DNA of 64,000 nucleotides from Seiridium cupressi (lineage: Eukaryota > Ascomycota > Sordariomycetes > Amphisphaeriales > Sporocadaceae). The stretch spans positions 310,001 through 374,000 of the forward strand of contig JARVKI010000038.1 of the NCBI GenBank assembly GCA_036674765.1, read 5' to 3'. This document shows positions 2,935-53,712 of the stretch, one piece after another (position 1 is the stretch's first letter; each line of letters opens with the position of its first letter). Position numbers and translations under genes: made by a program. The notes beneath the pieces were generated by a model. It saw only the letters and a program-made list of their open reading frames with translations, did not search any database and was not told the DNA's origin.

Positions 2935-3075
2935 ACATTCCTGACTGGTTCTGTTTGCCAATCTTCCCCTTCTTCAACAATCCGGCTCTGCATCTCGTTG
3001 CAGTAGTACCACCAACCCGAGGAAAAAGAATCCTTCTCCCCATCGCTATCTACTACTTCCCCCATCATCCCCATC
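2935..3075 (+). promoter_or_regulatory. Pyrimidine-rich leader of the Ish1-repeat gene
   Basis: Just before the ATG at 3076 the sequence is rich in C and T, with runs such as CTTCCCCTTCTTC and CTACTACTTCCCCC. CT-rich stretches near the transcription start are typical of well-expressed filamentous-fungal genes. Assignment is by composition and position only. Confidence 0.35.
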
Positions 3076-7172: not shown

Positions 7173-8500
7173 TCACCTCCGGGATGAAGATTTGGTGTTA
7201 CAGACTTTCTGTGAGAGTATTAGCAACCCGGTGCCCATTTGATGCTTCACGGTGTAGATTAGATTACTTACTGCGCGTCTGTCCGTAAAGTCAGTGTAGA
7301 ACCCATTCCAAAGCTCTCTTGCCGAGCAGTCCTCGGCGCCGTTCTTCTGAACGCACTGGGGCTGCTTGTCCTTGCGCATGCTCTCCTGCATAGGGATCCA
7401 AGGCTTCGGAACAGGCCAGTCGGAGAAGTGCAAGAACTTGGCCTCGTTGAAGACTGCGACCGGATCCCACTCCTCTCTGTCGGTTCCCAAGTATTTCTCG
7501 TGGTTGTCACCGCGGAACTCGCCGGTCAACAGATCGTAGGGGCGGTGTGGCAAGATCATGGCCTGGTCAATGTAGAGCTGGTTTACAATCTCCATATCGT
7601 AGTCGTTCTTGCCTGCCTCGGATACTTTCTTCTGGATGCGGTCGAACTCGACTGCGCTAGGCTGAACCAGCATGAGCTGCGACGACAAGATTTTGGAGTC
7701 GGGGAACAGCCAGTATGCTCTCGGCATGGCTACGGGGCATGGCGGCATCAGGAATAACTCGTCCATGGTCTGTAGGATTGTAGCATCGGAATCAACGTTC
7801 AGGACTCGCTCATATTGGGTCTGGTTGAAGGCAAGAAGCTTCGTGAATGATTCGGCCCAGGTCGCTGTAGATTCAATAATTAGCACAATTTTCAGGGGTT
7901 GCTGCTCTGGTCATACGTACAATCGCCACCAGCTCGCCTTTGAACGGCCACGGGATGTAACTTCACCTTGTATACATCTCGTGCTTTGATCAGGAGCTTG
8001 GCTGCTTCCGTCGTCCCCTCAGTCGCCGTGGGGTCCATCATGCTCTCGGGATACATCATAACGCGGTCAGCCTTGCTGCCAAGGCGGTATAGCGTCTCGA
8101 AGATCATGACCGAGTTGCATAGGTAGGCCTGGTTTGTGACATATTGCGTGTATGCGAATCTGGACCAGTTGATATGGCTATCGTCGTACGACGCCGGCAC
8201 CGAGGCTGTCGGGCAATTCGAGTTCGGGTTCGACGGCGCGGCTCCGTAGCCTGACTTGAGGGTGTCCAGCGACGGCAGAGAGTCGTAGTTTCTGAAGGCC
8301 AGCACAAAAAGTGCAATGGCGGCCAGGGCCGTCCCCGTATACCGCACCCGCTTCGACATGAGGATCTGTCCGATGCTTGGCCGTACCTTGAGCGAGTTGA
8401 GGGAATCTGCTGAGGCTGCGCCGTTGGAGGACTCGCTCGTCGCCAGCGGACTGTATTGCTGGTATAAAGAGGACAAAGAGCCCCAAAGCGGAGCCATCAT
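7173..8500 (-). CDS. Glycosyltransferase family 8 (Gnt1/glycogenin-like), type II membrane
   Basis: On the minus strand, exons 8500-7921, 7864-7272 and 7208-7173 join in frame to 402 aa. A membrane segment (YTGTALAAIALFVLAF) follows about 50 cytosolic residues, giving a type II Golgi-enzyme layout. The lumenal part has the GT8 pattern: FNQTQYERVLNVDSDATI, whose DSD is the DXD nucleotide-sugar/metal site, then VAMPRAYW and FLHFSDWPVPKPW. Fungal relatives include the K. lactis Gnt1 N-acetylglucosaminyltransferase; the exact donor and acceptor cannot be read. The last intron is 63 nt (GTAAGT, GCTAATAC branch, CACAG) and a multiple of three, so retaining it would add 21 residues without a stop; the spliced form restores an RR-x-VC-type C-terminus. 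Two ATGs (8500 and 8497) open the frame. The frame stays open upstream to 8926 but has no recognisable domain, so I treat it as leader. Confidence 0.85.
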
Positions 8501-10459
8501 GGAAATGGTGTTGAGTTGTGATACGATATGATGCAGATCGTCGTCTATCGGCTCTCCGGGGGCAAATGGGTCAAATCCTTCCAGCAATGGTGAGTTGGGT
8601 AAGCATGGGAATTGTTGCGCAGTTGTTGCGAGGTGTTGTAAATTATCGACATGGGGGCTGGAAACCGTTGGCTGAAAGGCAGCGATGATGCACGACGCGC
8701 CCGTAGCGCTACGTAGCCGTAGCTCATGCACTGTCTGCTGTCTGACCAGTGGAGCTGAGCCCCGGGTCAATGGTAGGCGGGCGCCGGAACAACCGCCGTC
8801 AATCTGTAGCACCGCCACAGAATTCTTCCGACACGGCAAGGTTCCAGCGCAGATATGCAGTGTAATTGCATTTTGTTCGGCTGGAAGACACGATACACAA
8901 GATTTCAACACCCCCCAGGCAGCCACCCCAAGTTAGGTACGTACCTACATGTAGGTAGGGCACGCACACGGGTTGATGGCTGATGGTCTCAATTCAAACC
9001 TTCTCCACGCCCCCGGTCTTGGGACGCCATTGCCGTCGCCATGCATGCGGCTCTTAGAGTAACATCAGCCAAGGTAACGACGCAGATGACCCTGCACCTC
9101 ATCGACTTGGCCACCACGACATTCATATAATTACATTTCTGGTCAGAAAACCCCACCGCTGTGTTTCGGGAGCACACAAGGCACAGTTGACCGGAGCGCA
9201 TGTTGAAGGATCCGAATGCCTGGAATGTCTAACGGAATATAGACAAGCGCATCTCCATATCAGCAGCATCCCTGTCGTCAGCTACATGGGCTCCACTCTG
9301 TTTCCATCGTCCTATTTGTCAAACATACGCCTATCTTTAGGCTTGAATAGGGAGGGTAGACACCTCAGAAAGCGGACAGCGACAATAATGGCGGTATTCC
9401 AGTTCGTAGATAGATGCCGCGCCTGAGTTTTCCGAAGCGAAACCTTCCACGTTCAAGTCGATTGAACGAGCAAAGCTGATCACCCAACGCGAGTGCTGGA
9501 GCTTCGGATTTGCTGCGCCGCTGGCCGATAATTGATGTGAACGGAGAGTTTTGGGGTTCTATATTTGGCGATTGCGGGGCGGTGCTTGAAATTGCAGGTT
9601 GATCGCTGCTGTTCAAAGATACCCACTGTTTAGCCCTACAAGGTTTAAGTCTGCTGGGCTGAGCGCAACTTTCGGCCGCTTTGCGCTGTCGTGCGAGATC
9701 ATGGTCCCCAAGCTGTCGTCCGTCCGCCCACTAGTTAGGTTTCATTTGACATCAACTATTTCAGACCCGATACTGCATGTAGTAGAGGCGGGTGTTGGCG
9801 TACAGAAGTGGCTACCATCCGAAAGGGATTCTGCCAGGGCGGCTGCAAAGCAAAGCGCAAAAGACAGGATGTTGCTTGCCGGCTGCGGCCATACAATCGG
9901 GGACCAACCTGGAGCCATCAATCTCTCGCAGGAAGGATCAGGCTAGACCCTAGTAATAAGAAAATGCGGTCATCCTTCGACTTCCCCCGTCGGCGGTTAG
10001 CCAGCCGCGATTGCTGCTCGCCGTTATCACACTGTAACAGAATCGCGCCTCACAGCCATGATTTCCAAACCGGCATAGACCCCCCCCTTAGGTCGTTTTC
10101 TGACCGCTGGTGGCCGCTGGCGTAGCGAACCGTCTCTTTAAGCGCTGGCGGTTTACTGTGCCCTAGCCACCTCTGATACCAGATCGCTCCTGGCTCTTCA
10201 TGGATCCGAATGGCCTCCAGATAGACTGTGCAGGGGACTGTCTGCACCATCAGCAGGGCTGTTGACACCAAGGGTCGTGTGGAACCCAGCCCAATCTGCT
10301 GGATCCCCTCTCTCGCGCGATGACTACCTATTTTGAGGATCTACCTTCCTTCTTCCCTTACTCTCCTCTAGTCAGATAACCTCTTTGCTTTCGTTTCCCT
10401 CGTGGTAACCTCGTATCTCGTTGTGACATCTAGAAGTCCGCCTGTAAAGTCACAACAAG
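8501..10459. other. Divergent intergenic region (GT8 and pepsin-like gene promoters)
   Basis: This holds the promoters of the two divergent genes. Apart from the leader-side open frame to 8926 and small open frames there is no supported coding sequence. Two perfect overlapping palindromes lie at 8934-8955. A CT-rich stretch precedes the pepsin-like gene around 10345-10400. Confidence 0.5.
8934..8957. repeat. Overlapping palindromes of the TAGGTA type
   Basis: TAGGTACGTACCTA (8934-8947) and CCTACATGTAGG (8944-8955) are perfect palindromes that share CCTA. They lie about 435 bp upstream of the GT8 start. They could be a regulator site or a simple-sequence palindrome; I recall TAGGTA-rich tracts as common in fungal intergenic DNA. 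Confidence 0.5.
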
Positions 10460-19823: not shown

Positions 19824-20309
19824 TCATTCAAAGGTTCGGAATTCTGGGTCTGCCCTACTTCTGCTCTCCGCGATGGCTTCCTCCAAGTTCGCCTTGCCCA
19901 GGAAAGCATCATGAAGCAGATTGACAACGATCGTCTTCATTTTCCCATCCACGACGACGTAGTGTGCCCAGACCTGTATCTTAATAATATCACCGGGCTC
20001 TACAGCGTGTCCAAAGACGCCATGCGGCAGCTTTTTCTTATATGTGAAGTAGCTTTCCATTATGTAGAAGATGTTGTGGCCGTCGATCGCTACAACCAGC
20101 GGGATGAGGATCTCATCTGCGACTTCGAAGAGCGGAACATAGTGGGCCTTTATCCCCTCCGAGCCTTTCAACAGTGGTGTTTGGGGATCTGGGAGATCTA
20201 GGGTGACATCATCGTGATAAAACGAGTGCTGCACCTTGAAGTCGTGCGCGTTGAAGGCACGGACATATTTGAGGAACTCCTCCCGCGAGATTGTGGAATC
20301 TGGCATCAT
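19824..20309 (-). CDS. SnoaL-like / NTF2-fold protein
   Basis: A single-exon gene of 161 aa on the minus strand, opening with two adjacent ATGs (20309, 20306). It fits the NTF2-like fold: an N-terminal helix (SREEFLKYVRAFNAHDF), a Y-H-D-D-V-T-L-D-L-P strand, G-x-x-G-I-K-A-H-Y, then strands ending VWAHYVVVDGKMKTIVVN. The nearest named groups are SnoaL-like polyketide cyclases and ketosteroid-isomerase-like proteins, which act on small hydrophobic or polyketide substrates. It is transcribed away from the polyketide synthase starting 2.35 kb to the right, so the two could share a cluster. Enzyme activity is inferred from fold alone; an uncharacterised NTF2-like protein is the safe call. Confidence 0.8.
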   Translation of the reverse strand: MMPDSTISREEFLKYVRAFNAHDFKVQHSFYHDDVTLDLPDPQTPLLKGSEGIKAHYVPLFEVADEILIPLVVAIDGHNIFYIMESYFTYKKKLPHGVFGHAVEPGDIIKIQVWAHYVVVDGKMKTIVVNLLHDAFLGKANLEEAIAESRSRADPEFRTFE

Positions 20310-22661
20310 GTAGTCGGGGTTATGTGGCTGTATGGAATGAGTGAAGATGAGAATTGATTCTAGACCTGATGCCTATAACTAATGAATCTGTGTGCCTTCT
20401 ATTCTTGTTTATCTTGTGTGACGCGTCATTGTGGTTTTGTGTTCATTAGTACCTGACTGCTGCAATCAGCGTGTTGCATTCACCAAACAAAATATGCACA
20501 GTTAATCTACTACCTGCCCAGCTGGGGGGCAGCACCGGTAATCGCGAAGGATACCAATAGAATCCACACCTTCCTAGCGCGGCGAAAAAAGGGATCTACT
20601 ATGGTTGCGAGCCGATCATAACTACCCCTGCAACGTAGCAAATCTGTTGGCACGGACCAAGTACAGTCATTTTCCGGCTGAATGGCGTCACAAGAAAGTT
20701 CCGACTTGGGTATAGTCCTGATACCCCGATGATAGTATAGGAAGAAAAGTGGACCCTCCGCCGTGATCTGTCGAACTGTTGTCTCATGAGAACCAATAGG
20801 TATCTATTACTGAAAGTGCCAAACAACTTGTGCTTATCTCCGTAATTACAGTGGCTTGACACCCTTTCGGAGGTGAAACATCGTCTCGACCGGGGCCGGA
20901 CCTGATCTCACATTTCCACTGTCCGAATTGCCTGACAATTGCCTGTCGGCCCTCCAACTTATATCACGACCGACTCACCTGCCAGAGTCTTTGGTCCAGT
21001 GCGTCTTATGAGAGCGATCGAACAGTTGCAGTCGGCGTGGTCAGATATCGCGATACCAAATCACGGTATCGACTCTCTCCACGGAGCCAAGTTTCGTAGA
21101 CCCTGTTACCAACCAGCAGCGTAACGCCAGCCTGGAGTGCGCCCCTCCCCCCCGCTAAATTTGCAGTCCCATCCGAGACGTACCTTAATCTCCTTGTGAG
21201 CGGTCCATAACTCTTCATCCTTATCATGCCTTCTTACCTAAAACAGCGGGGCTAGTTGCGACTCCTGGCACAGCTCTATAACGATAATAGAGCTCATGTC
21301 CTGCAGCTCAGTCGCCATTGACACACTGTCTAATCGCTCGAGCCATGGGTCCTACTTGTTTCCCCAGTATTCAGTCATTACTGTTATAGTGACAATTTCC
21401 GTGGTACTCCGTTTAGGCTTTGCGAGACAGATGATGTCGTCCTTGTTGGTCAATCGTAGAATGTGGTCACAGACAAGAAGTGAGTAGTGTACGACTGGTG
21501 ACAGTAGAGCGTGGGAGCTTCTTAGTCAAACGGAGCATAAGAGACTATAATTCTCCAGTCTGATCAACAAACAGTGCACTAGAGGCTATCGAACAGTATA
21601 TTGCAACACACTGCAGTTCAATTCCGGCGGCAGATAGGAAGACCAGGGGGTGGGGGAGTTGTGGGGTCTCACATTTGCTTGCCAATAGCCGTGTACAATA
21701 GAAACAGGAATTCTCATTGAAGGGGCTAATAGAAGCCGCGAAGAAAGACATGAGCTCTTGTTAGAAGAAGCATATTCTCATGGATAACTAGCAACTTACA
21801 AAAACCACATTCTGTGAACAAGAGAAAGAAAGAAAAAGTTGATTAATCCTAACTGATTATCTAGGGGCTGCAAGAACAAGAAAACAGACACTTGAATGCT
21901 GAATTAGCTATCAGTCTGGGGATTGTCCCACGGCCCCCTTTTTAAGCTTACATGTAATAATGCATACCCGCTTAGGCGATTCCAGTATGGATGGAACCCC
22001 TTGTATTATAGTTTCCTTTTTCGGACTGCCCGCCACGCGTCCATAGATAATATGTGTTTGATAAGCAGGCAACTTCTTCCAGGATGATTATAGATCTACG
22101 TGTCGCCTTCCTTTGAATCATAACGTATGGTACCTTGCGAATTAGATCATATAGGCCATACCTTATCTGGCAAAAGCTGCCAAGGTAACGTCTCGCTTCC
22201 GCAGATACCGGCCAGAAATAATATCATTACTCAGGTATGGCGTGTTGATTGGTTGAGCGCTCTATTTGTTCCGTGGGGTTTCATTCGTTATTGCTATGGG
22301 AAGGCAGTATCACCGATTGCCGCAGGCTGTAAACGTCGAGCTTTAAGCTCCGACCAGCTTGCCAATATGTATCTAGTACGACTGGCCATCCGATAATTAA
22401 ACTGGTTCTTCGCGTAGAACCATCAGGTATATTATACATTACGCATTATCCATAAATAAAGTCGTTATCGTCGTATATGTACACCTCCCCGCGCCTATTG
22501 CATCGGCGTTGACGTAAACCGTCTATTAGGATAGACTGTAGGCTTGAGACTATCCCAAGTACAAATGAGTATTTCTACCATACATCTCCTCCAACCTGGT
22601 GCTGTGATTAGCACAGCAAACAGCTCCTCCCTGCACCACCTCACATATTCTTGGGAGCGAT
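20310..22661. other. Intergenic between SnoaL-like gene and megasynthase
   Basis: The divergent promoter region of both genes. Short open frames (21006-21227 -, 22127-22396 +) have no motifs. No supported gene. Confidence 0.5.
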
Positions 22662-25600
22662 ATGTCCCAACCCACTTCGGTCCCCAAACTTCTCCTCCAT
22701 CATGCGGTGGAGAGTCGTGATAAGGTGGCCTTCTCAGGCCCAGGGTGGGCAATTGTACGTTTCGTTAAAGCCAAGTTTTACGCTTCTAGCAAGATCTGGG
22801 GTCGCTTGTTCATATGTCTGAGCTGGCTGGCGTTGTCCTCATATTTATGGCAAGTGACTGACTCTCAATGTTTCTGTAGACCTACGGCGACCTCGAAAAG
22901 CGGACAAAGCGCATATCAGCTCATCTAGTTCGTGCCGGCATCGGGAGAGGAGATTTTGTAGCGATCGTGCTCGGCAGATGCTTGGAAGCTGTTGAATCCG
23001 TGCTCGCAATCACGAGATCAGGTGCAGTTGGTGTTCCTCTGGATCCGCGTTCACCATCATCAGACTTGGCCAAGGTGCTGGACCACAGCGGCGCGCGCGC
23101 AATTATCACAGATGACCGACACTTGGCTACAGTGTGCGCAGCTGCCGGAAAAGAATGTACGATCATAATAAGCACCCCGAATCCCTCGGTGGACGTGATA
23201 GAGGGGGGGTTTTCGGCTGTGCGGTATCAGGACTGGGCTGAAGATGAGGAAGTTGTCACCTCGGATGTCACCCTGGACGACCTTGGTGAACATGAAGAAG
23301 CCTTTCTGCACTATACTTCTGGGACAACGAGTTTAGCTAAGGGGGTGTTGTCGAGTCAGAAGAGCATCCTGTGGAACGCCAACAACGTTGCTTCGGTGTT
23401 TGGCCTGTCGTCCAAGGACCGCTTCTTTTGGCCTCTTCCATTATTTCACATCCTTGGCCATTCGCTGTGCATCATGGCGACAGTGATCTTGGGTGCTAGC
23501 GCCCATCTCTCCGACCCAGACCAGACGCTGTTGGATAACCTTTTGGTGAAGGAAGTTGAAGACGCAACAATAATTGTCGGCGCGCCAGCCACTTTCCATG
23601 AGCTCGCCGAAGCGAGGACGGAGGCATTATCTCCTCTAAGCTTGCCCAGACTGCGGGTGTGCATGAGTGCAGGAGCCGCGGCACCTGTACCTCTATGTAA
23701 CCAAGTCCAGGAGCTCTTCGGTGTTCTGCTTCAGAACAACTACGGATGTACGGAGACTTGCGGCGCCATTGGAGTCAGCCGGCCAGGCGATGTATCCCAC
23801 CAACATGGGAGTGTTATGCCACTCCCAGATTGGGAAATAAAGCTGATGGATCAAGATGGAAATCAAGTCAAAGATGGCGAGCAAGGAGAGGTCTGGGTGC
23901 GCGGTCCCGGCCTAATGCTTAGATACTACAAAGAGGCCCAGAGTCCCTTCACCGCAGACGGCTGGTTTCCCACCGGTGATACGGGAATCCTCTCGACCGC
24001 AGCTACTGGGAGGGAGTTGAGTTTAGTTGGCCGGAAAAAGGAATTGATTATCCGAGGCGGTGAGAATATTCAACCTGCCGAGATCGAGCAAGTCTTGCTT
24101 CAATATCCCGGTGTGGCCGACGTTGTTGTCGCCGCCGCTCAGCATAAATTACTCGGCGAGACCCCTGCCGCCTTCATCGTCAAGAACGCACCGGACCTTG
24201 ACCTCGACCTATCCGCCCTCCTCGCCGCGTGTCGGCAAGCCCTGCCAGACTACAAGGTCCCCACAGGTAAGAGACAGTCACAAGACATTCATCGACTCAG
24301 CCGTGTCATTCAGCTAACACTCAGCCAGCGTTTTATGAAATCGATGCTGTGCCTCGAACCCTCTTGGGAAAACCGAGACGATTGGCAGTGGCTTCTCTCA
24401 CGAGTAAACCACTCACAGTTCGCTTCAATTTGAATTCAAAAGACTCTGTTGAAGCATTAGTTCTTGCAGAAACGGCCGGCGCATGTGGTGTGCAAGCTGG
24501 TCCTGGGGAGAGCGAATTAGACCCCGACTGGCTTCGCAGACACTTTGACCAAGCCTTTGTTTTCCTAGGTTTGACTTCGATGGCGGGTGTGGTCCTTCGA
24601 GACCGACTTGCCAGCCTCACTGGCTTGAACAATCTGCCTAACACCCTCGTGTTTGATTACTCGACCCCTGCAGCTGTGAGTGAATACCTCTACAGCCGGC
24701 TTACGGAGCTCGAAACACCGCCATCACCCAAGGCAGCACCCACCGGGACCGAAGCCGAGCCAATCGCCATCATTGCCATGGCTTGTAGATACCCGGGAGG
24801 TATTTCTTCGCCCGACGACTTGTGGCAACTCGTCTCTGACGAGGTAGACGCGACTAGCGACTTCCCAGATGATGTAAGTACACGGATTCTGAAGGTTTTC
24901 ATTGTGGAGGAAACTTCAATGATCACTAACAAAGCACGTAGCGCGGCTGGAATGTCGACTCCTTGTATAGTACTGACCCAACGGAGCCTTTCACCTCTAC
25001 AACGAAGCGCGGGGGTTTCCTCCGGGACTTTGCCGACTTTGACGCCGGGCTCTTTGGTATGGCACCACGGGAAGCCCTCGCCACTGATCCTCAACAGCGA
25101 TTGTTACTGGAGACCACGTGGGAATTAGCCGAGCGAGGAGGTATTGCCCCGTTGTCGCTGAAAGGCACCCAAACCAGTTGCTTTATTGGCACTCTGTACG
25201 ACGATTATGAAGCGAACGGATTTGGAAATGCCGGTAACGTATCCCGCTCCTGCATTCCAGTATAACAAATCATGAATATACACTCACAGATACCTGTGAT
25301 GGTTGGTAGAATTGGAAGCTCATCTTGGACTTGGCTCGTCTGGCAGCGTGGTCTCCGGGCGCATTTCTTATTGCTTTGTGAGTGCTCTTCAACTTTTCTC
25401 TTGACCGGCAGATGCTTTATAGACTGTCATTATTGTAGAAAAACACATTTTGAAACAGTGGGGGATAATACTAACCAATCGCTTTTACAGGGTCTGCATG
25501 GTCCTTCGCTCACCATCTCAACGGGATGCTCGTCCTCGTTATGCGCCATCCATGCAGGAGCGCAATCTCTACGAAACGGAGAGTGCACCCTCTCGATTGC

Positions 25601-28600
25601 GGGAGGAGTAACAACCATGGCGTCTCCGCGGCCATTCACCATGTTCAGCAAGCGACGAGGCCTTTCGGCAGATGGCCGATGCCGAACGTACTCGAGTGAT
25701 GCGGCTGGTACTGGTTGGTCTGAGGGTGTAGGTCTGATCATGCTCGAGAAGCTATCGGACGCCAAGCGCAACGGGCGTCGTATACTTGGTGTGATCCGTG
25801 GCTCTGCAGTCAACTCAGATGGTACGTCGAATGGCTTGACGGCTCCAAGCGGACCCGCGCAGCAGATGTGTATCCAGAGTGCACTGGCCCAGGCAGCGCT
25901 ATCACCGGCAGACGTGGACGTCCTTGAAGGCCACGGAACTGCGACACCCCTGGGCGATCCTATCGAGGTACAGGCCGTGATCAATGCCTATGGAAATGGT
26001 GTCAACGGTGCTCACCGCGCGAACCCATTGCTGCTGGGCTCGATCAAATCCAACATTGGCCACACGCAAGCCGCGGCAGCTGTCGCAGGAATCATCAAGA
26101 TGGTGCAGTCTATTCGCCATGGTGTTGCTCCGACATCATTACACATCCGCGAGCCTTCCAAACACATCAACTGGGAAGGGTGTGGTGTTGAACTGCTTGA
26201 TAAGGCCAGACAGTGGCCACTGGTGGACAGGCCACGACGTGCTGCAGTGTCCTCGTTGTAAGTAACACCTCTTTTCATTCCATCGTGATACCTCGGGACT
26301 TGAATGAACACGACTAACGCTTCCACCAGTGGTATCGGAGGTACAAACGCGGTATGAATAAACCCAACCCTCTCCCTTCCCCTATGATTTGATGATATTC
26401 AGAGTTCAACAGCAATCTCATATCTAAAGATTTTCGAGTCACCTACTCGCCATTTTTAGAAACTTGCTAATTCCGAGGTGCAGCATATCATTCTAGAACA
26501 GCCCGAGACTGCCGAACAAGACGATCTCTTGGCATCCAGGGACCGCAACATCGCCTATCCATGGATTCTTTCGGGTGCAGACCAAAATGCTTTACACGCG
26601 CAAGCTGAGGCATTGCTGGCCGCGTGGCGTGGAGACCTTGGCAAGGAGGGTCCTGCAGACATTGCATTTTCGCTTGCAACCGCAAGATCTGCTCTCAAAT
26701 ACAGAGCTGTGGTGACATACGCCCTTGGGCCCAACTTGAACGATCAAATTGAATCAGCACTTACGGCTCTTGCCCAAGACGAACCCCACCCCGACACTGT
26801 GACGGGAAACATCAATACCACCGGCAATAAACCACGTCTGGCATGCTTGTTCTCGGGCCAAGGCAGCCGGATGCCCGATATGGCCGCTCTGGAGGAGCTT
26901 CGTGCCGCTTTCCCTGTCTTCTCCCAGGCGTTCCAGGCAGCCTGCTATGAAGTAAACCAGCACCTCGAGCATCCGGTAGAACACGCTATTGGCGATAGTA
27001 GCCTTCTGGAGCGTACCGACTTCTCCCAAGCCACGCTGTTCGTTTTTGAGGTGGCCATGTACCGCCTTCTCGAATCATGCAATGTCCGACCCGACGTGGT
27101 TTCTGGCCATTCCCTTGGAGAGATCGCAGCAGCACATATCTCTGGAGCTCTGTCTCTTCGTGATGCCGCTATTATCGTCACCGCACGATCTAAGCTAATG
27201 GCCGCCCTAGATCCAAACGGTGGAATGGCGGCCATCTCGGCTACTGAGGAGGAAGTTGCCGAGGAATTGTTGCGATCGGGCAGCACAGCTACTATCGCAG
27301 CGGTGAACTCCCAGAAATCGGTCGTGGTATCCGGCACTCAAGAGGCTATCAAGGCCGTCGCAGACAAGTTCGCAGACCTGGGACGCAGAACTACTGTCTT
27401 GCGGAACGTCAGACATGGCTTCCATTCTCCAATGATGAATTCAATTCTTCCCGACCTCGAGGACACCCTGGCATCGTCTCTGGAAGGAGGAAAAGCGTCA
27501 AAGATACCGCTCGTCTCCACCGTCACAGGCAAGCGAGCCGATGCAGCTCAGCTCAGCTCTCCAAAACACTGGGCGAGCCATGTCAGCGAGCCTGTCCGCT
27601 TCGCAGATTCCGTTAATGAGCTCTTGTCAGCCGAACGTGTCTCAGTATTTGTAGAAGTCGGCCCATCTGCAGTACTCTCTCCACATGTCCCGGGTACCAT
27701 CGCCACACACGGCACAGTCGGCAAGCTATTGAACACATTGGGCCAGCTTTGGTCCCGAGGTGTACCAGTAGACTGGCAGGCCGTTTACGGAAGCACCGGC
27801 GCGCGTCTCGTTGATCTGCCTGTCTATGCCTTCCAGAGGCGTAAGTTCTGGCTGCCATATAGGACGCTGTTGCCAGCGGAGTCTATTGGGCCAGTTGCCG
27901 CGCAGCCTCAAGCGCAGGGCGTGGGTGCATCTACATTGGACCATGGAGTGCTGCTTAACGCCACATCAATTCCAGGAATAAACAACATCGTCTGTTCTGG
28001 CCTCCTGTCGACGACCAGACAGCCCTGGTTGAGCGACCACGTCATTAGTGGACAATCCCTCGTCCCTGCCACGGTATTCGCCGAACTGGCATTACGAGCT
28101 GGCCATGAATGTGCAGAATCCTCTGATTCCGAGCAGATGATACTTGACGAGTTGGTTCTTATGGCGCCTTTGGCTCTATCCTCAGCGGAGGAAGATGATG
28201 AGCAAGAAGTCCAGATCCAAGTGGTTATAGGAGAGCCACAGGACGAAGGGGGTCAGACAGGACGAAGTATTGACGTTTATTCACGCCCCAGCGGTGTTGC
28301 AACACAGCATGAATGGACACAGCATGCCACTGGCACCCTACAGCTGGCCCCACGGCCAGGCTCCGAGAATGAATCATTGACAAACGGCACATATACCACA
28401 GAGGTGGACTCGGATGTAGATGTTGCCACAGCATACGCCGCTCTGGACGATGTAGGAATCAGCTACGGTCTGATTTTCCAGGGAGTACGTGCCATCTGGC
28501 GTAAAGTGGACAACGAGCTACTGGTACAGATCGAGCCTCCTCAAAACCAGGGCCAAAAGTCGGGTTTTATCCTGCACCCGGCCCTGCTCGATGCTGCATT

Positions 28601-31466
28601 GCACGCTCCGATTCTTGCAGCGCCAGAGAAGGTTTCCAGTGGACAGATCCGATTGCCATTCTCGCTGCAAGGAATACAGGTCTTCGCGGCCGCCACTAGC
28701 GCTTCTGGACCGCTCCTAGCACGTATCCGTGATCTGGGCGAGGAGCGTCTCTCGGTGACCATTACCGACAAATCAACAGGTGCACTAGTTGCCGAGGTTT
28801 CCGAAGTCAAACTACGTGTCTTCCAGCCTGCGGTTGCTGAAGGTGACCTATACCGCCTAAAATGGACCGAGTTGAAGTCTGCTCCCGCAAAGAGATCGAG
28901 TGTGTCTGATGAGATTGTTGTTGTTCCAGGGTCTCATAACATTGATGCAGCAGAGGTTCCCAAGGCCGTCCACAATGCCGTCACAGAGACGCTCCGTGCG
29001 GTGCAAGAGTGGAGGGCTAAGAAGGCACAGTCTTCTGTCAGCAGCCGCCTCGTCTTCGTCACTGAAGAGGCGTCGTCAATTCCCGATGCCGATGTGGTTA
29101 CTGGTGCAGTATGGGGCTTCGTCCGATCTGCGCAGGCAGAGTTTGGTGCGGAGAACATCATTCTCATCAACTTGGATGGGTCAGCTGAGTCGCAAGAGGC
29201 TCTTTCGGCCGCTCTCGCCGCTGGAGAGGAAGTTGTTTCCGTGCAAGGCGGCAAAGTCATGGTCCCTACGCTGAGCAAAGACTCTCTAGTTCCGAGTACC
29301 TCCACTTCGACGACACTCGATGTCAGTGGTACGGTCCTGATCACGGGAGGTACGGGAGGACTCGGTGTCATACTTAGTCGATACCTTGTGCGCAACCACG
29401 GAGCAGAGAATCTCCTCATCGTCAGCAGATCAGGCATTGAGGCTCCAGGAGCGCAAGATCTACTCGACGAACTAAGCGGTCAAAATGAAGCAGTGGTTCG
29501 TATCGAGGCATGCGACATCAGTGAAAGCGACCAGCTGGCCGCACTGCTGGAACGCAATAATGGGCATCCACCTATCACCGCCATCGTCCACTGCGCAGGC
29601 GTGGTTGATGATGGAGTCCTGAGTTCGCAGACCGCAGAGCGAGTCTCTCGTGTCCTGCGGCCCAAGGTCGAAGCCGCCTGGAATTTGCACCAACTAGCCC
29701 CTGACACGGTCCGTTCTTTCGTCCTCTACTCATCGTTTGTTGGTGTCATCGGAAATGAAGGCCAGGCCGCCTACGCCGCAGGCAACGCCTTCCTCAATGC
29801 GCTGGCCCGCCTGCGTGTTTCTCAAGGGTTGCCCGCTGTGTCGCTGGCTTGGGGGCCTTGGGCAAATGATGTTGGCATGGCCGCCGGGAACAAGCTAGCA
29901 GTCCCCAACCTTCGTGTCGCGAATGCTCAGCCGTTCGTGGACCAGCAGGGACTGCAGCTATTCGACAGGGCGCTACAAGCATCAGAGCCTGTCCTCGTCC
30001 CGCTGCTGCTACGCGGGCCGTTCCCAATGGTCCCGGCGACCGGTACGAAGTCCAAGGCTGGCAAGGCATCCGCCAAAGGTGGAGCGAAGACGGGTGCTGT
30101 ATGGCGTAGAAAGCTTGCTGCGGTCTCGCCGGAGGATCGCGATGATACGTTGCTGGGCCTGGTGCGAGACGAGATTGCTGCGGTGCTTGGATACCAAGGC
30201 GACGATATGCTTCCAGATAAGCCATTAACCGACCTCGGCTTTGACTCATTTACTTCTGTCACGGTCAGTAATAGAATGAGGGTTCTGACTGGGTTCCGTG
30301 ACCTCCCCGTCACACTGGCGCTTGATTATGATTCACCCCAAGCGCTGGTGAAGTATCTGTCAGATCGGTTCAAGGCTGAGCCCGACCCAGAAGTCGATTT
30401 GGACTCATATATCCCCGACGAGGAGACTGCTTCCGGTGTGAATGGCAGTGAACAAGGTCCGACAGCACAAAATGGCCATTCCAATGGCTTATCCAACGGC
30501 TCCTCCGGCACTGTGGACGGCCCTGACAATATCAACCCCGAAGAGTTTCGAGGGCTGGCCAAGCTTCACAGACGACTTTGTCGGCTCGAACAGTACACCG
30601 CAGCCGCAGATTTGCTGGCCTCCGCCGCGCTGGCAATGCCGACATTCCCCAAGGACGGGCTCAGTCTGTCGAGTTACATTGCGGATCCCCAGCGCCTGGC
30701 TACCGGTCCTTCAGGGTCTGATGCGCCTTTGCCCCTGGTATTCATTGCCCCATTCTTTCCACGCATCAAGATCGGAGGTGTCGGGCTCAGCGTATACAGT
30801 GCAGTCGCGTCTGCTTTGAACGGGCAGAGGGACGTGTTTGAGCTTCCACACCCGGATGGACAGGTAATCCCCGAGGACCTCGACACGCTTGCCGAGTTGC
30901 ATGCAACCACGATCCGAGAACAGTTCGCGGATAGGTCGGGAATCATACTTGCAGGTTATTCTGCCGGTGGCACTATCGCGTACGCTGTGGCATCCAAGCT
31001 GGCTCAGGGTGGAGCTGGCCCCCGACTCGCGGGTTTCGTTCTGGTCGACACATACCTGACCATGACAGGACGGGGTGACCCAGACTGGCTGAACGCCCTA
31101 CCGGCCGAGGCACTGGTGTCGCGTCTGGGAGGCCCCAGTGTTGGCGGGCCTGAAGCCATGGGGGGTGAGAGTCTCGTTGGAGATCTGGACCTGGCATTGA
31201 CCAAGGTGGGCGGTTACTTCAGGACGCTGCGGGACTGGGATCAAAACCTGTATCCTCTGCCTGATGCACTCTCGACCTTGTTCGTGCGCGCTCTGGATCC
31301 GTCGGACAAGATGCCCAAGGACGCGGATATATGGCGCCCCAAATGGCAGCGGGCGAATTTCACGGTTGAAGTCCCTGGAAGTCATCTGGCGCTGCTCGAC
31401 AAGCGGTACGCTCCTGCTATCGCTGTGGAGATCCAACAATGGGCGAAGGAGCACTTGGCGGATTAG
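22662..31466 (+). CDS. CoA ligase-ACP-KS-AT-DH-KR-ACP-TE polyketide megasynthase
   Basis: Eight exons (22662-22754, 22880-24266, 24329-24873, 24942-25233, 25310-25377, 25491-26257, 26330-26351, 26484-31466) join in frame to 2718 aa. Order and key residues: acyl-activating domain (YTSGTT near 176, [14 protein letters not shown] near 415, GK Lys 508); ACP1 (LGLTS, Ser 577); KS (Cys 808 in STGCSSS, His 943 in EGHGTAT, His 986 in SNIGH); AT (GHSLGE, Ser 1268; HGFHS suggests malonyl); DH ([10 protein letters not shown], His 1577); KR (GGTGGLG near 2013, VDD, Tyr 2155); ACP2 (GFDS, Ser 2313); TE (GYSAGG, Ser 2551, His 2692). There is no enoyl reductase or methyltransferase. It should load a carboxylic acid, extend it with malonyl units, reduce and dehydrate, then release by thioesterase. 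[41 protein letters not shown] and SLAWGPW resemble bacterial modular PKSs. It is not an NRPS A domain, since A8 is ligase-type. The substrate is unknown. Confidence 0.95.
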
Positions 31467-32805
31467 AATCCCATTTGATAGAGAAGAAGACAAGTAGACA
31501 GAGAGGTATCCGACAACATATAGATTTCATTACAGGTAGAGTAGCCGCAATTATTGAACTGGGCACTGGGAACGTTCACGTCCTATATAGTGATTAGCAT
31601 GTTCGCGCGTGTAATGCCTCAATGTATTGCGCGAGCTGGTGCGGCCAGCCACTAAATTCGCACGTGTTGGCGCACTTTCTGGCGAGCCCAGTGGCGTGGA
31701 ACTCCCTGAGAGCTCCGCATTCGGCATCGTTCATATAAGATATATTTCAGCCGCTCTCAAGGCTGGAGGCAATTGTTCACCAATTGGAACTTTGAATTTC
31801 TTGTTTATTTCGATAGATTGATGCTTGCTGTTCCTAGCCACCACAGGTGATGCATCAACGAAGGCCCACGCGTGCTATTGCCCACCCAATCGGATTGGGC
31901 TCCTGAGGGCCTCTCTGAACCAACCTTTAATTCTCGGTTACTGGTTCTAAGCCACGAAACACCAAAAAAAAAAAAAAAAAAAACAGACACAGTAGTTCCC
32001 ATATTTCTCAGAGTCGTTGGCAAAAAGGACTCATTTAGGAACTCCCATCTAAAAGGAAAGACGTCGATTCTCTAGATTTAATCATGATTTCGTTATAGCG
32101 TTTCTAGTATGAGCCGTGCTCCATTCTTCGGCGTAAATATTGAGTTGAGCTGCGCCTTTACTTTTTTCTTAAAGGTATTATCTTTGGTACTATCGCGGCG
32201 TCAGGAAGGATTGCTAAGTTTGGAACATAACCTTTCTGATCAGTACCCGTGAGGCGACTCGAATGATGATAGTATCGAATGGTGGTTTGTCTTACGATGA
32301 CCACCCCTCCCAAGCTCCTGGCCACTTGTCTCTGTATAACATGCGGCATGGAAAAGAAATACAGATCCTGGGAATTGGAAGAAACAACCGCACATCCACG
32401 TGTTTTTCAGGAAAACACGAATTGCCACGCGAGCCGCCTGTTATCTAACAAAATCCGGCATCGGGGATCCTGTGTCCGGGCGAGCATTTTCTATGAATAT
32501 GGTCAGATAGGGGCTCTAAAGCCAGAGATGCATTATAATCTGTCGATCACACGTTGTTTCCTTGATTGTTCTGCTGGTTTATGAATCACCAGAACATTGT
32601 ACAATTCACTGTTTCACAGCACACACCCACCTCCTGCCTGACTGAGTATCATTACATTCACTCACATTTGTTCCTATCACTACATAAAATACAGCGCGTT
32701 CATCAGTTGTCCACATACTAACGCGGAGCTTTGCTTTACCTTACCGGCGTGCTTTGTGCGTCTTTTGAAGACAATTGAAGACTCAAGCTCGTGTCCCGGG
32801 CCATC
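31467..32805. other. Intergenic between megasynthase and IDO gene
   Basis: No supported gene. It contains an uninterrupted A tract at 31964-31983 (20 A). Short open frames such as 32279-32584 have no motif. The IDO promoter should lie at its right end. Confidence 0.5.
31964..31983. repeat. A20 homopolymer tract
   Basis: Twenty consecutive A residues in an intergenic stretch. I see no retroposed gene to the left of it, so it is probably a simple microsatellite rather than a poly(A) tail. Confidence 0.9.
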
Positions 32806-34192
32806 ATGTCTCTACATACGGTTTGTACATCTGTTACAGAAACGGAGCAAGACATTCATCAGTTTCTCTGGAAGGTTTACGATGTGACGTCCACTGGCTT
32901 CCTGACGGAGGTAGCACCATTGCCGACCTTTTCTGATAGTTACTATCAGCCCTGGGACGACATCATCAGCAAACTACCGCAATTACTGAATGATGGCACG
33001 TTGAGGGAGGAGACGCTCGCTTTGCCACTACTCTCGACATATAGGATTCATTCGGAAGCTGAATGGAGGAGAGCATACTCGGTGCTGGCATTCTTGACCC
33101 ATGGATACATTTGGGGTGGGAAACAAGCCGCTGAGGTCCGCTTAAGTATAAAAAAGGAAGGACATTGACTAATCCTACTAGATCCTACCTATTGTGATAT
33201 CAAAGCCCTTCACCGAAGTCGCGCGGCGGCTTGACCTTCCCCCAGTTCTTTCCTACGCCGCTTGCAATCTGTGGAACTTCACTAGCAATGGAGGAGATTT
33301 CACCGACCTTGAGAATCTCTAACCTTTGCATAGCTTCACTGGCACGGTCGACGAAGCTTGGTTCTTAATGCTTTCCGTAGCTATGGAAGCTCAGACAGCA
33401 TCCATCAATCCTGTCATGAAGCGCGCTCTTGACGCAGTAGGAACTCGAGAATACGACGTCATTAGCGACGCTCTCGAGAAACTGATTATCTGCATTGGCA
33501 AGGTGGGCGCATTGCTCGAGCGAATGTACGAGAAATGCAACGAGGATGTTTTCTACCACCAGATCCGCCCTTACCTAGCGGGTAGCAAAAATATGGAAGC
33601 GGCAGGACTGCCTCGAGGCGTCTTCTACACTACTGGAGACCTCGGAGAAGGCAATTGGATGCAGCTCCGCGGCGGTAGCAACGGGCAAAGCTCCATCATC
33701 CAGATCTTTGACATCGTGCTTGGAATCCAGTATAGGCACGAAGTTCCTAGCAATCCGCTGTCCTCGGAAGCCTGCGCAACACGAACTTTCCACGAGGAAG
33801 TTAGGGATTGCATGCCGGAGGGCCATCGCCGCTTTTTCCTTGAAGTATCGCGAATGGGAAGCATCCGCCAACTGGCTAACCTCCCTGCATCCACTCCTGA
33901 GCAGCAGCGCTTCTGTGCGACGTACATTCGGGCTACGGAGATGCTTGGTGTCTTTAGGAGCAAGCATATTACTCTCGTTATCCGGTATATAGTGCTGCCC
34001 TCAAGGAGGGCAGTCACCGATCAATTAGGCAAACAAAACTTCGCGAGCGCATCAGCGGAAGTCCAGACAATTGGCGGAAGAGGCGGTCGGGAAGCGGATG
34101 CCGAGTTGAAGGGCACCGGAGGAACGACGTTAATACCGTTCCTCAAGCAGGTCAGGGATGAGACTATCGAGGCTGGAGTACTCAGAGCATGA
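32806..34192 (+). pseudogene. Indoleamine 2,3-dioxygenase with one in-frame stop
   Basis: Exons 32806-33135 and 33182-34192 join in frame (446 codons plus stop, normal for fungal IDO). IDO is a heme enzyme that opens the tryptophan ring to N-formylkynurenine. Recognisable blocks are FLTHGYIWGG, LPPVLSYAACNLWNF, LRGGSNGQSSIIQIFD, CMPEGHRRFFLEVS and SKHITLVIRYIVLP, the last carrying the expected proximal heme histidine. TAA at 33320-33322 cuts the frame at about residue 157, between TDLENL and PLHSFTGT, and the same frame then runs on intact for 290 codons. TAA could arise from CAA by one C-to-T change. The intron donor (GTCCGC) is also weak, though its GACTAAT branch and TAG acceptor are good. 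If the stop is real the product lacks the heme pocket. It lies 1.3 kb after the megasynthase in the same direction, so it may be a lost cluster enzyme. Confidence 0.85.
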
Positions 34193-35910: not shown

Positions 35911-37232
35911 AATGTTGAGAAGTTCATCTTAGGTCATCATCAAATACCACGACTATTCAATGGCTTGTGGCAACTCTCTTCTCCTGCTTGGGGCTCGAGC
36001 ACCGCCGAAAAGCAAGATGCAGCTCTGGCGCACTTGATCGTGTGCGGCCTTACGGCGACTGACATGGCTGACCATTATGCAAGTGTCCTCTGTTCTCTAA
36101 GACGATCGTTATAGTGGCTAATTCGTATCATAGGGAGATGCAGAGCTGATATACGGCGAGTTCCGCAATCGACTTGCACCCGAGGTTCGTGAGCAGGTGT
36201 ACGCTGCGACGAAGTGGTGCGTCTTTAGTCCGACCAACCAGCCTGTAACCAACGCCTTCGTACTTTCTGCCGTGAAAGAGCGATGCAGGAGATTGGGTGG
36301 TAGAGTGGAATTACTGCAGTTCCATTGGTACGACGTATGTTCAAAGTTGAGAATCTGAACCAGCGCACGAATTGACACCAGCTCCAAGTACGAAGCCAAA
36401 GAATACCTTGAGATTCTAGGCGAACTGGTAAGCATTACCAAGACGCACCCGGACTTAGTGTCAACAATCGGATTGTGCAACTTTGATTCGGCACACACCG
36501 AGAAAGTTTGCGAATACCTCCTGTCCAAGCAAGGTTCTATAGGCATTGTGTCAAACCAGGTTCAGGTAACACTCTTCTAAGCTAAACATTCGGAAACGAT
36601 CTACTAATCGCTCCAGTTCTCAATGTTTGATTCTCGACCGTTGCAGCAAATGACCGCTGTTTGTACGAAATATGGCCTCAAATTACTGACATACGGGTCG
36701 TTAGTAAGTTGACTTCAATCAACCAACTACTCTACATATCGTCTAAACAGTTTCAGTGCGGCGGCCTTTTGTCCGAAAAATGGCTGGGACAACCTGTACC
36801 TGAGATCTACGCAGAGAATAATCAGCTCACGCCATCTCAAAGAAAGGTATGTCTATGATCGTTAAGCTCTGCAGACCACTGCTGAATTTGCATCAATAGT
36901 ACTTTGACATGATCCAAACCTGGGGTACTTGGGCCGATTTTCAGAAATTGCTCCATGTCTTATCATCGACTGCCGACAAGCATGGCGTATCTTTGACGAA
37001 CGTGGCGACGAGATGGGTCCTTCAGCAACCAGCCGTGGGGGCCGTCATAGTGGGCACACGCCTCGGTGTGTCTGCTCATGGTGATGAAAATCTCAAGGTC
37101 TTCGATTTCAAATTAGACGACGGCGACATAAAGTCCATCAATGATGTCGCACTAGGCGAGAATGGAGAGAGGTCTCTAGCGGTACTCCAGCTGCTGGGAG
37201 ATTGTGGACATGAGTACCGCGCAATGCACTAA
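35911..37232 (+). pseudogene. Aldo/keto reductase domain lacking its own start codon
   Basis: Exon pieces ...-36078, 36134-36334, 36389-36565, 36617-36703, 36757-36846 and 36900-37232 join in frame into a full AKR domain. Markers: VPRLF-type start (HHQIPRLFNGLWQLSSPAWG), the catalytic tetrad as Asp and Tyr in TDMADHYGDAE, Lys in AATKWCVF and His in LLQFHWYD, then IGLCNFDS, GIVSNQVQ, YGSLCGG, VTNVA-type SLTNVATRWVLQQ, GAVIVGTRLG and a C-terminal GDCGHEYRAMH. AKRs reduce carbonyls with NADPH; the substrate is unknown. Two splice sites are odd: the first intron starts GCAAGT (GC-AG) and the second ends AAG. No ATG lies between the upstream helical segment and this domain, so it is either a fusion protein starting at 35503 or a broken gene. 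Neither is proven; the tetrad being intact favours recent loss. Confidence 0.65.
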
Positions 37233-45570: not shown

Positions 45571-46371
45571 ATGGTCACTAATAAAAACGAGAGGAATATG
45601 ACACCGGAACGTCCACCATCAGAAGGAATTGAATCATCGAGATCCATGACGGAAAACTTGATCGAAGGGCAAGGATCTCGCCAGACAATCAAAGCCGCAC
45701 CACTGGCTGAGAGGGAAACCCTGGCATGGTGGTTCCCACAGATCAACAACGACGAAAAGAAGAGCTTCCGCATTTGGCTATCCAGACAAAGCCGTGCCCT
45801 TATGCTACAAATCTCCATAGCATCCGCTGTGTTCGTCGTCAACCTCGCTCTTACTGCTTTTGTTGTCTCGAAATACCAAAGCCAAAACGGCATGGGGGTG
45901 ATCTACGATGGCGACTGCAACACTGTAAAACAACTCGACCAATGGCTCCACTTGTTGATCAACCTCCTGAGTACTGGACTGCTATCTGCGTCCAATTATT
46001 GCATGCAGTTGCAAGCGGCGCCAACGCGGGATGATATCGACCGGGCCCATGAGGCTAATACATGGCTGGACGTTGGCATCCCGAGCTGGCGAAACCTTGG
46101 CTATATAAGTGGCTGGAGGCGATTCACATGGATTCTTTTGGCATTTAGTTTAGTTCCCCTTCATCTTCTGTAAGTGGTGCGGAGACTGCTGGAAGGAGTT
46201 CTTTTGCTAATATCAGCATAATAGATACAATTCGGCCGTGTTTCAATCTTTGGCATCGAACGACTATACTATCGCTGTAGTGAAAGATTCCTTCTTCCTT
46301 CTTGAATGGCAGCACCTTTAATCTGACGACAGCGGAACAGAACCGGGAGAGTGACTTTGCCTGGGATGATA

Positions 46372-46376
46372 GCAGG
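46372..46376. repeat. Target-site duplication GCAGG, left copy
   Basis: GCAGG directly before the 5' LTR matches GCAGG at 54144-54148 directly after the 3' LTR. Five base pairs is the usual duplication for Ty3/gypsy integration. Confidence 0.85.
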
Positions 46377-46807
46377 TGTTACGAACGCAGGCCAGGGACA
46401 AGGCCTTGTGTGGAAAACAGGAGCTTGGACAGCCAATCACTGCCGCAACAATCTTATTGGGTAGAAGGAACCCAGGCACTCAGGTCACGTGATTAAAAGC
46501 GACAGGAACGCAGCGCTCCTATAACTCCAGGAGCGGTAGGAGCTAAGCGTTCCCAGCGCTCCCGCAAGCATTAGTAAGGGAATAAATGGATATATATACG
46601 ATAAATATTTTTTATATAAATAATTATTATTTTAATAATTAATTTAAATATTTATTTATTTATAAATAAGGCTTATTAAGCTTTAACGATTATATTTTTA
46701 TTTTTTAAAACTTAATATTTTTATTTTATATTACGTATTTTATTAATATAAACCTAATATTAATATATTATTTTAAAGTTTATTTTAACGATAATATATT
46801 TATTATA
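46377..46807 (+). repeat. 5' LTR of the Ty3/gypsy element
   Basis: A 431-bp LTR, starting TGTTACGAACGC and ending TTATTATA (decayed from a CA end seen intact in the other copy). It is the same length as the 3' LTR. The outer ~190 bp has normal base composition, while the inner half is strongly AT-biased and differs from the 3' LTR by C-to-T and G-to-A changes. Confidence 0.9.
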
Positions 46808-49255: not shown

Positions 49256-49260
49256 ATTAT
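49256..49260. repeat. Target-site duplication ATTAT of the nested solo LTR, left copy
   Basis: ATTAT before the nested LTR matches ATTAT at 49733-49737 after it. The site is AT-rich so chance is possible, but it coincides exactly with both LTR termini. Confidence 0.7.
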
Positions 49261-49732
49261 TATAACGAATATATTATCGTTAAGATAAACCTTAAGATAA
49301 TATATTAATATTAAATTTATATTAATAAAGTACGTAATATAAAATAAGAATATTAAATCTTAAATAAGAATATAATCGTTAAAGCTTAATAAGCCTTATT
49401 TATAAGTAAATAAATACTTAAATTAATTATTAAAATAATAACTATTTATATAAGAAATATTTATCGTATATGTATTTATTTATTCCCTTATTAATCCTGT
49501 TTGCTTATGACTGCTTAGTAAGCGGAACTGATTATAATCAGTGTTGATTAGTGAGTCCTACTAATCACTCCTAATCGTTGGCTCTCATTAGTTCCTATCG
49601 TTTGCCTTATCTCCACCGCACTGGTATTTAGAATGTTTGCTTCCTACGCGTTCGTTTTTCCCTTGTCTTGGTCCGTGCTCGCGGAGTAGGGTTTGTTCCG
49701 TTCCGGTTCTCCTTTAATCTATATTCGTAACA
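49261..49732 (-). mobile_element. Nested solo LTR, reverse orientation
   Basis: Read on the minus strand this 472-bp unit starts TGTTACGAATATAG and ends in the same TATATTCGTTA(C/T)A-type terminus as the host element's LTR. Its inner-side half (R-U5, + 49261 to about 49490) is clearly homologous to the LTRs of the surrounding element, but its U3 half (about 49490-49732) is unrelated and of normal base composition. It is flanked by ATTAT repeats and has no internal region, so it is a solo LTR left by LTR-LTR recombination of a related subfamily. Confidence 0.8.
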
Positions 49733-53696: not shown

Positions 53697-53706
53697 AAAA
53701 AAAGGG
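53697..53706 (+). other. Candidate polypurine tract
   Basis: The purine-only run AAAAAAAGGG lies 6 bp before the 3' LTR, where plus-strand priming of a retroelement starts. RIP may have changed some G to A. Confidence 0.45.
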
Positions 53707-53712
53707 ATTTAA

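What the first reader, a model, noticed from the sequence alone, without database searches (positions are those of the whole stretch)
22662..31466. Bacterial-style polyketide megasynthase with its own acid-activating domain
The sequence shows a complete CoA-ligase-ACP-KS-AT-DH-KR-ACP-TE line with all catalytic residues, spread over eight exons that splice in phase. Most fungal PKSs are iterative, lack an N-terminal ligase, and have fungal-type KS and DH motifs. Here RGWNVDSLY, the KS region, [11 protein letters not shown] and the type-B-like KR look like actinobacterial modular PKS. Known fungal enzymes with a similar start are, as I recall, hispidin synthase (acyl-activating domain) and SwnK (A-T-KS). 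The exact combination with DH and TE looks undescribed; horizontal transfer followed by intron gain is inferred.
Basis: partly seen in the sequence, partly recalled or inferred. Interest (0 to 1): 0.88.

Follow-up and report, generated by a model that had tools for sequence, protein, structure and literature searches.

The report
Fungal flavonoid synthase of bacterial origin
This fungal gene encodes one giant enzyme that activates an aromatic acid and extends it, most likely into a flavonoid precursor; such enzymes are already known in fungi, and this one looks like a bacterial gene that a fungus took up whole.

Summary
Window 22662-31466 is one eight-exon gene, in phase, encoding 2718 aa with A(CoA-ligase type)-T-KS-AT-DH-KR-ACP-TE and every catalytic motif I looked for. 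The novelty claim does not hold: exactly this architecture is published as FnsA of Pestalotiopsis fici, a naringenin synthase fed by p-coumaric or p-hydroxybenzoic acid (PMC9606254). FnsA's starter-carrying peptide ends [12 protein letters not shown]; the same 12 residues stand in the window protein and in 0 of 21 bacterial relatives scanned. Best reading: a FnsA-type, aryl-acid-primed iterative PKS making a chalcone/flavanone. FnsA's full sequence could not be compared. The bacterial style is real: the KS is 55-62% identical to actinobacterial KSs, against at most 45% to 10 PKSs of this fungus, and joins 21 actinobacterial one-protein enzymes of the same domain order (100/99; 98/99 with 15 more modular KSs). 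Whole-gene transfer is the simplest account, though a KS-only AU test does not exclude a place outside the sampled bacteria (p 0.255). A flavin-halogenase-family gene lies beside the bacterial gene in 8 of 10 loci examined, an open lead. Verdict: new member of a known kind.

The parts
22662..22754 (+). exon 1 (start codon; N-terminus of the A domain)
22880..24266 (+). exon 2 (most of the A / CoA-ligase-type domain)
   Evidence: PF00501 2.4e-76, PF13193 1.8e-9
24329..24873 (+). exon 3 (end of A, T domain, start of KS)
   Evidence: acceptor CCAG|CG
24481..24723 (+). T domain (approximate limits); pantetheine serine Ser577 at 24577-24579 in [12 protein letters not shown], as in the FnsA peptide
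24942..25233 (+). exon 4 (KS, with RGWNVDSLY)
25310..25377 (+). exon 5 (KS)
25491..26257 (+). exon 6 (KS active site TGCSSS, EGHGTAT, KSNIGH)
26330..26351 (+). exon 7 (22 nt, KS end GIGGTNA)
26484..31466 (+). exon 8 (KS end, AT, DH, KR, ACP, TE, stop)
26802..27749 (+). AT domain (approximate limits; GHSLGE; HGFHS, malonyl-type motif)
27927..28829 (+). DH domain (approximate limits; [20 protein letters not shown])
29337..29909 (+). KR domain (approximate limits; [12 protein letters not shown]-type-like)
30132..30374 (+). ACP domain (approximate limits; LGFDSF)
30627..31463 (+). TE domain (approximate limits; GYSAGG)
19824..20372 (-). neighbour: open frame with a SnoaL-like domain, the only match to itself found in this genome, divergent from the synthase; possible cyclase/isomerase partner (inference)

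Best explanation
The gene encodes a FnsA-type fungal NRPS-PKS hybrid. The N-terminal ligase-type A domain adenylates a free aromatic acid (p-coumaric or p-hydroxybenzoic acid in FnsA) and loads it on Ser577 of the T domain. KS and AT then add malonyl units iteratively with the one module. With p-hydroxybenzoate, KR and DH would act on the first extension only, giving a p-coumaroyl-type thioester, and be skipped in the next three; with p-coumarate they would be skipped throughout. Claisen cyclisation and release, spontaneous or by the TE, would give naringenin chalcone and naringenin or a close relative. The gene descends from an actinobacterial one-protein enzyme of the same layout, taken up whole, with introns gained later. 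Shown here: gene structure, domains, motifs, kinship, bacterial affinity. Inferred from FnsA: starter acid, iteration, product; the part of KR and DH is my inference from the two starters. Inferred from trees: transfer and its direction.
For: Same domain order as FnsA. FnsA's modified peptide [20 protein letters not shown] matches the window's [20 protein letters not shown] at 14 of 20 positions, the last 12 without change; [12 protein letters not shown] is in 0 of 21 bacterial enzymes scanned. The best solved relatives of the A domain are mostly acyl/aryl-CoA ligases (2-succinylbenzoate, feruloyl, oxalyl, further down 4-coumarate and 4-chlorobenzoate ligases). The genome holds one match to the aromatic ammonia-lyase family, E 3.7e-147. 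As reported for P. fici, no clear tailoring cluster was seen around the synthase. Bacterial descent: KS median identity 61% (58-62) to 21 bacterial one-protein relatives and 55-61% to 15 Micromonospora modular KSs, against 44.7% to the nearest and 39% or less to the nine others of 10 own-genome PKSs; KS trees 100/99 and 98/99 for window plus the 21; A tree 100/100 with the 29 PKS-fused actinobacterial ligases, A domain with five own fungal ligases rejected, p 1.3e-4; long-alignment tree (quick method) SH-aLRT 100.
Against: The FnsA, CfoA and A. campestris sequences could not be fetched, so kinship to FnsA rests on architecture and a 20-residue peptide. NRPS A domains (linear gramicidin synthase) are also among the 12 best solved relatives of the A domain. 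The window row is a long branch in every tree. The KS AU test does not reject window plus own fungal PKSs on one side (p 0.255), and the A test does not reject the window outside the other 29 PKS-fused A domains (p 0.329), so 'nested inside bacteria' is not proven by either domain alone. By identity alone the KS is as close to some Micromonospora modular KSs (61%) as to the one-protein enzymes. The bacteria were chosen for A-T score and frame length. The ammonia-lyase family also holds histidine ammonia-lyases. No expression or product data.
Confidence: 0.68

Rival explanations
1. Same family and same priming logic, but another product: fewer or more extensions, lactonisation to a pyrone or styrylpyrone, or an aryl-polyenoic acid, because starter pocket and TE differ from FnsA.
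For: Other fungal NRPS-PKS hybrids give pyrophen, hispidin or an aryl-pyrone (listed in PMC9606254). DH and KR are intact by motif. ACP and TE are the least conserved domains against the bacterial relatives (medians 36 and 35%).
Against: The identical 12-residue T-domain core and identical domain order point to FnsA; I did not check the other hybrids' sequences or domain lists one by one.
Confidence: 0.25
2. A SwnK or NPS7/PKS24-type hybrid (A-T-KS-AT-KR-ACP-reductase).
For: Both start A-T-KS-AT, and the literature derives the NPS7/PKS24 type too from bacteria (PMC3226686, passages).
Against: The window enzyme has DH and TE and no NAD_binding_4 reductase domain; this genome has a separate enzyme of that layout, C51, an open frame of 2511 aa; grouping the window KS with it costs 22.3 log units, p 0.047. 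That SwnK has this layout is recalled.
Confidence: 0.02
3. An ordinary fungal type I reducing PKS that captured a CoA-ligase domain.
For: KS AU test with own fungal PKSs is not rejected (p 0.255).
Against: KS 55-62% to actinobacteria against 39% or less to nine own fungal PKSs; colinear bacterial relatives from A to TE; A domain with own fungal ligases rejected.
Confidence: 0.03
4. Bacterial contamination or an assembly artefact.
For: Bacterial-looking protein.
Against: Seven introns; it lies in a 398,669-base contig beside genes such as an Ish1-like, a DUF3176 and an indoleamine-dioxygenase-like one.
Confidence: 0.01

Closest known systems
FnsA (PFICI_04360), naringenin synthase of Pestalotiopsis fici (PMC9606254)
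   Same: A-T-KS-AT-DH-KR-ACP-TE in one fungal protein; T-domain core [12 protein letters not shown]; no clear cluster around it
   Different: Pantetheine serine at 577, not 607; full sequence not compared; product here untested
P168DRAFT_323099 of Aspergillus campestris and CfoA of A. candidus (chlorflavonin, chalcone synthase)
   Same: Hybrids tied to flavonoids; 323099 is 64.3% identical to FnsA; CfoA named as chalcone synthase in PMC12010586 (passages)
   Different: Sequences not available here; no halogenase was seen among the 49 neighbouring frames scanned in the window
   Same: Colinear; 14 of 21 align unbroken from A to TE at 38-42% identity; GLTS carrier motif in 14 of 21
   Different: One open frame; a flavin-halogenase-family gene beside 8 of 10 loci examined; product unknown to me
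SwnK / NPS7-PKS24 hybrids
   Same: A-T-KS-AT start, bacterial affinity
   Different: Reductase release, no DH, no TE (for the C51 enzyme of this genome; for SwnK recalled)
Hispidin synthase HispS
   Same: Listed with FnsA among characterised fungal NRPS-PKS hybrids
   Different: Domain set recalled as lacking DH, KR and TE; not tested here

Membership tests
FnsA-type fungal NRPS-PKS (naringenin synthase) | Domain order A-T-KS-AT-DH-KR-ACP-TE in one protein | tested here: met
   T by motif and alignment only
FnsA-type fungal NRPS-PKS (naringenin synthase) | T-domain peptide with pantetheinylated serine | tested here: met
   14 of 20 residues alike, last 12 identical; modification itself not testable
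FnsA-type fungal NRPS-PKS (naringenin synthase) | High full-length sequence identity to FnsA and to P168DRAFT_323099 | not testable with these tools
   protein search switched off; no tool at hand gave these sequences
FnsA-type fungal NRPS-PKS (naringenin synthase) | Adenylates p-coumaric and p-hydroxybenzoic acid and yields naringenin | not testable with these tools
   needs expression
Actinobacterial one-protein A-T-KS-AT-DH-KR-ACP-TE enzymes | KS groups with them apart from multimodular and own fungal KSs | tested here: met
   22-row branch 100/99 and 98/99 with 15 more modular KSs; caveat AU p 0.255
Actinobacterial one-protein A-T-KS-AT-DH-KR-ACP-TE enzymes | A domain groups with them | tested here: inconclusive
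   100/100 with all 29 PKS-fused ligases, 86/96 with the one-protein ones; p 0.329
SwnK / NPS7-PKS24 hybrids | Terminal reductase domain (NAD_binding_4) | tested here: not met
   absent; present in the C51 enzyme
Ordinary fungal highly reducing PKS | KS groups with the fungus's own PKSs | tested here: not met
   AU test not decisive

The most novel reading that the evidence does not exclude
The fungal flavonoid synthases of the FnsA type descend from a little-noticed, widespread class of actinobacterial one-protein enzymes (A-T-KS-AT-DH-KR-ACP-TE), and those bacterial enzymes, many with a flavin halogenase next door, are themselves type I synthases of chalcone-like, often chlorinated aromatics: a route to flavonoid skeletons without a type III chalcone synthase, shared by two kingdoms.
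Probability: 0.2. Interest if true: 0.75.

Novelty: new member of a known kind. Interest (0 to 1): 0.45.

Why it matters
It adds a fungal genome to the carriers of a non-plant route to flavonoids and gives a concrete whole-gene bacterial ancestor type for it. The bacterial relatives, with their neighbouring halogenase, can be expressed directly to ask whether flavonoid-type chemistry by type I enzymes began in bacteria.

Tried and rejected
The genome-contig scan with the full protein gave 4 loci: two Micromonospora modular PKSs and two partial matches (Methylobacterium, 28% over the A domain; Bacteroidales, 28% over part of the KS). The window's SnoaL-like protein against 194 predicted frames in the flanks of 10 bacterial loci gave no match; in the PDB it gave only weak hits, the best to a MonBI,MonBII entry (E 0.0029) and a probable monensin isomerase (E 0.16). 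Chalcone_3 (PF16036) gave nothing in the genome, but nothing rang in the 14 controls either, so this shows nothing. A paper search for halogenase plus single-module PKS listed two papers, neither to the point by title. Because the first KS tree lacked the Micromonospora KSs that are as much as 61% identical, I rebuilt it with 15 of them; the window stayed with the one-protein enzymes. Papers: PMC9606254 abstract, both parts of Results, Discussion and passages; PMC3226686, PMC6854747, PMC12010586 and PMC12634532 passages only; the chlorflavonin pathway work described in PMC12634532 was not seen. I did not make an AT tree, nor use more fungal KSs than 10 taken from this genome.
Full report
What is there. 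The window lies in contig C38 of a 45.4 Mb genome of 228 contigs. I take it for a filamentous ascomycete from the many PKS loci (83 ketoacyl-synthase matches, some of them exons of one gene), the short introns and the gene content; no tool named it. Window 22662-31466 gives one reading frame of eight exons and 2718 aa with GT..AG introns throughout. All seven introns lie in the first 3.8 kb; the last 5 kb are uninterrupted. Pfam finds AMP-binding, KS, AT, DH, KR, one carrier domain and a thioesterase; the first carrier domain is seen by motif and alignment. Every catalytic motif looked for is present.

What it is. The same domain order, A-T-KS-AT-DH-KR-ACP-TE, is published for FnsA of Pestalotiopsis fici (PMC9606254). 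FnsA makes naringenin and its chalcone from p-coumaric acid plus three malonyl units or from p-hydroxybenzoic acid plus four. The peptide that carries the starter in Fns[21 protein letters not shown], has 14 of 20 residues in common with the window protein, the last 12 unbroken. [12 protein letters not shown] is in 0 of 21 bacterial relatives; the shorter GLTS is in 14 of 21. The serine is residue 577 here and 607 in FnsA. I could not fetch FnsA itself, so this is strong but not complete evidence of membership. The A domain is of the CoA-ligase kind: its best solved relatives are succinylbenzoate, feruloyl and oxalyl ligases, with linear gramicidin synthase (an NRPS) also among the first 12 and 4-coumarate and 4-chlorobenzoate ligases after it.

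How it most likely works. By analogy with FnsA: adenylation of a free aromatic acid, transfer to the T domain, iterative extension by KS and AT with malonyl units (the AT motif is HGFHS; 21 of 21 bacterial relatives have HAFHS), KR and DH used once or not at all depending on the starter, ring closure and release. None of this was tested here. The genome has one match to the aromatic ammonia-lyase family (E 3.7e-147), a family that also holds histidine ammonia-lyases, so a cinnamate-type starter may or may not be made.

Where it comes from. Against 10 of this fungus's own PKSs the KS is at most 44.7% identical, and that to another hybrid (C51), then 39% or less for the nine others. Against Micromonospora modular PKSs the KS-AT stretch is up to 53% identical over its whole length and single KSs up to 61%. 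A search with the A-T part in 296 Actinomycetota genomes led to a 2704-aa bacterial protein aligned from window residue 6 to 2711 at 38%. In 391 genomes of that order, 98 had an A-T match at E 1e-80 or better, part of them in open frames of about 2700 aa. I fetched 20 of these, chosen for high A-T score and suitable frame length, plus the first one. In 21 of 21 the A, T, KS, AT, DH and KR domains align over more than half their length; ACP and TE in 20 of 21 (an antisense frame of L101 was dropped before counting). In 14 of 21 one unbroken BLAST alignment runs from A to TE at 38-42%. Median identities by domain are A 44, T 49, KS 61, AT 45, DH 40, KR 51, ACP 36, TE 35%. Pfam confirms A to TE in the two bacterial proteins I scanned.

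Trees. KS tree, 52 rows (1 window, 21 one-protein, 8 first-module, 12 later-module, 10 own fungal): window plus the 21 one-protein enzymes form one branch, 100/99. With 15 Micromonospora modular KSs added (67 rows) the same branch stands at 98/99. A tree, 50 rows: window with the 29 PKS-fused actinobacterial ligases 100/100, with the one-protein ones 86/96. Long-alignment tree, 26 rows, quick method: window plus 21 one-protein enzymes SH-aLRT 100 against four multimodular ones. Tests against this reading: holding window and own fungal KSs together is not rejected (p 0.255), holding window and the C51 KS together is marginal (p 0.047); holding the window A domain with five own fungal ligases is rejected (p 1.3e-4), but holding it outside the other PKS-fused A domains is not (p 0.329). 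The window row is long in each tree. The safe statement is that the whole protein is homologous, end to end, to actinobacterial one-protein enzymes and is not built from the PKS stock of this fungus that I sampled. Transfer from bacteria with later intron gain is the simplest account. Earlier papers already argue for bacterial origin of fungal NRPS-PKS hybrids, with the A. campestris one among those analysed (PMC6854747, passages), and of the NPS7/PKS24 type, which is intronless in the fungi named there (PMC3226686, passages). In the parts of PMC9606254 that I read a bacterial enzyme with the full FnsA layout is not mentioned, and none showed in the listings of three searches (one search listed 20 of 94 papers); supplements were not available.

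A lead in the bacteria. In 8 of 10 bacterial loci whose flanks I fetched the gene directly beside the synthase belongs to one family. Five of the eight were scanned: Pfam's best match is Trp_halogenase. Three of them were scanned in NCBIfam, where the chloramphenicol halogenase model is nearest but far below its cut-off. The other two loci (G452, G341) showed no member within about 14 kb. This suggests a halogenated product in bacteria; whether it is flavonoid-like is open.

Neighbourhood in the window. I scanned 49 frames outside the synthase's own reading frame, one of them antisense within the gene (29); genes cut by introns into shorter exons may have been missed. No P450, methyltransferase or halogenase showed. 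A SnoaL-like frame lies 2.3 kb upstream on the other strand, an indoleamine-dioxygenase-like gene 1.3 kb downstream, and an aldo/keto-reductase-like exon 5.4 kb downstream (36900-37229). FnsA too was described as standing without related neighbours.

Judgement. New member of a known kind; the interest lies mainly in its origin and in the bacterial relatives.

Noticed in passing
L061, L096-L115 (unnamed actinobacterial genomes): One-protein A-T-KS-AT-DH-KR-ACP-TE enzymes of about 2.7 thousand residues seem common in this bacterial order: 98 of 391 genomes have an A-T match at E 1e-80 or better, part of them in such frames.
   Followed up: partly
L122, L126, L132, L133, L140 and three more flanks: A gene of one family, flavin halogenase by Pfam in the five scanned, directly beside the bacterial synthase in 8 of 10 loci examined.
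   Followed up: partly
L039 (own genome C51:208000-217900), 1616-9148, - strand: A second NRPS-PKS hybrid in this fungus, 2511 aa in one open frame, A-T-KS-AT-KR-ACP-reductase, the layout recalled for SwnK and NPS7/PKS24.
   Followed up: partly
window 19824-20372, - strand: SnoaL-like frame, no second copy found in the genome, divergent from the synthase; weak similarity to monensin MonB proteins.
   Followed up: partly
window 32779-34192, + strand: Indoleamine 2,3-dioxygenase-like gene just downstream of the synthase.
   Followed up: no
window 36900-37229, + strand: Exon-sized frame matching the C-terminal part of the aldo/keto reductase family (E 1.3e-12), 5.4 kb downstream of the synthase.
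   Followed up: no
window 46001-54000: Block with G+C of 17-27% in a stretch of about 50%, perhaps repeats decayed by repeat-induced mutation (cause inferred).
   Followed up: no
G000:C8:684998-686527: The only aromatic ammonia-lyase-family match found in the genome (E 3.7e-147), a possible source of cinnamate-type starter acids.
   Followed up: no
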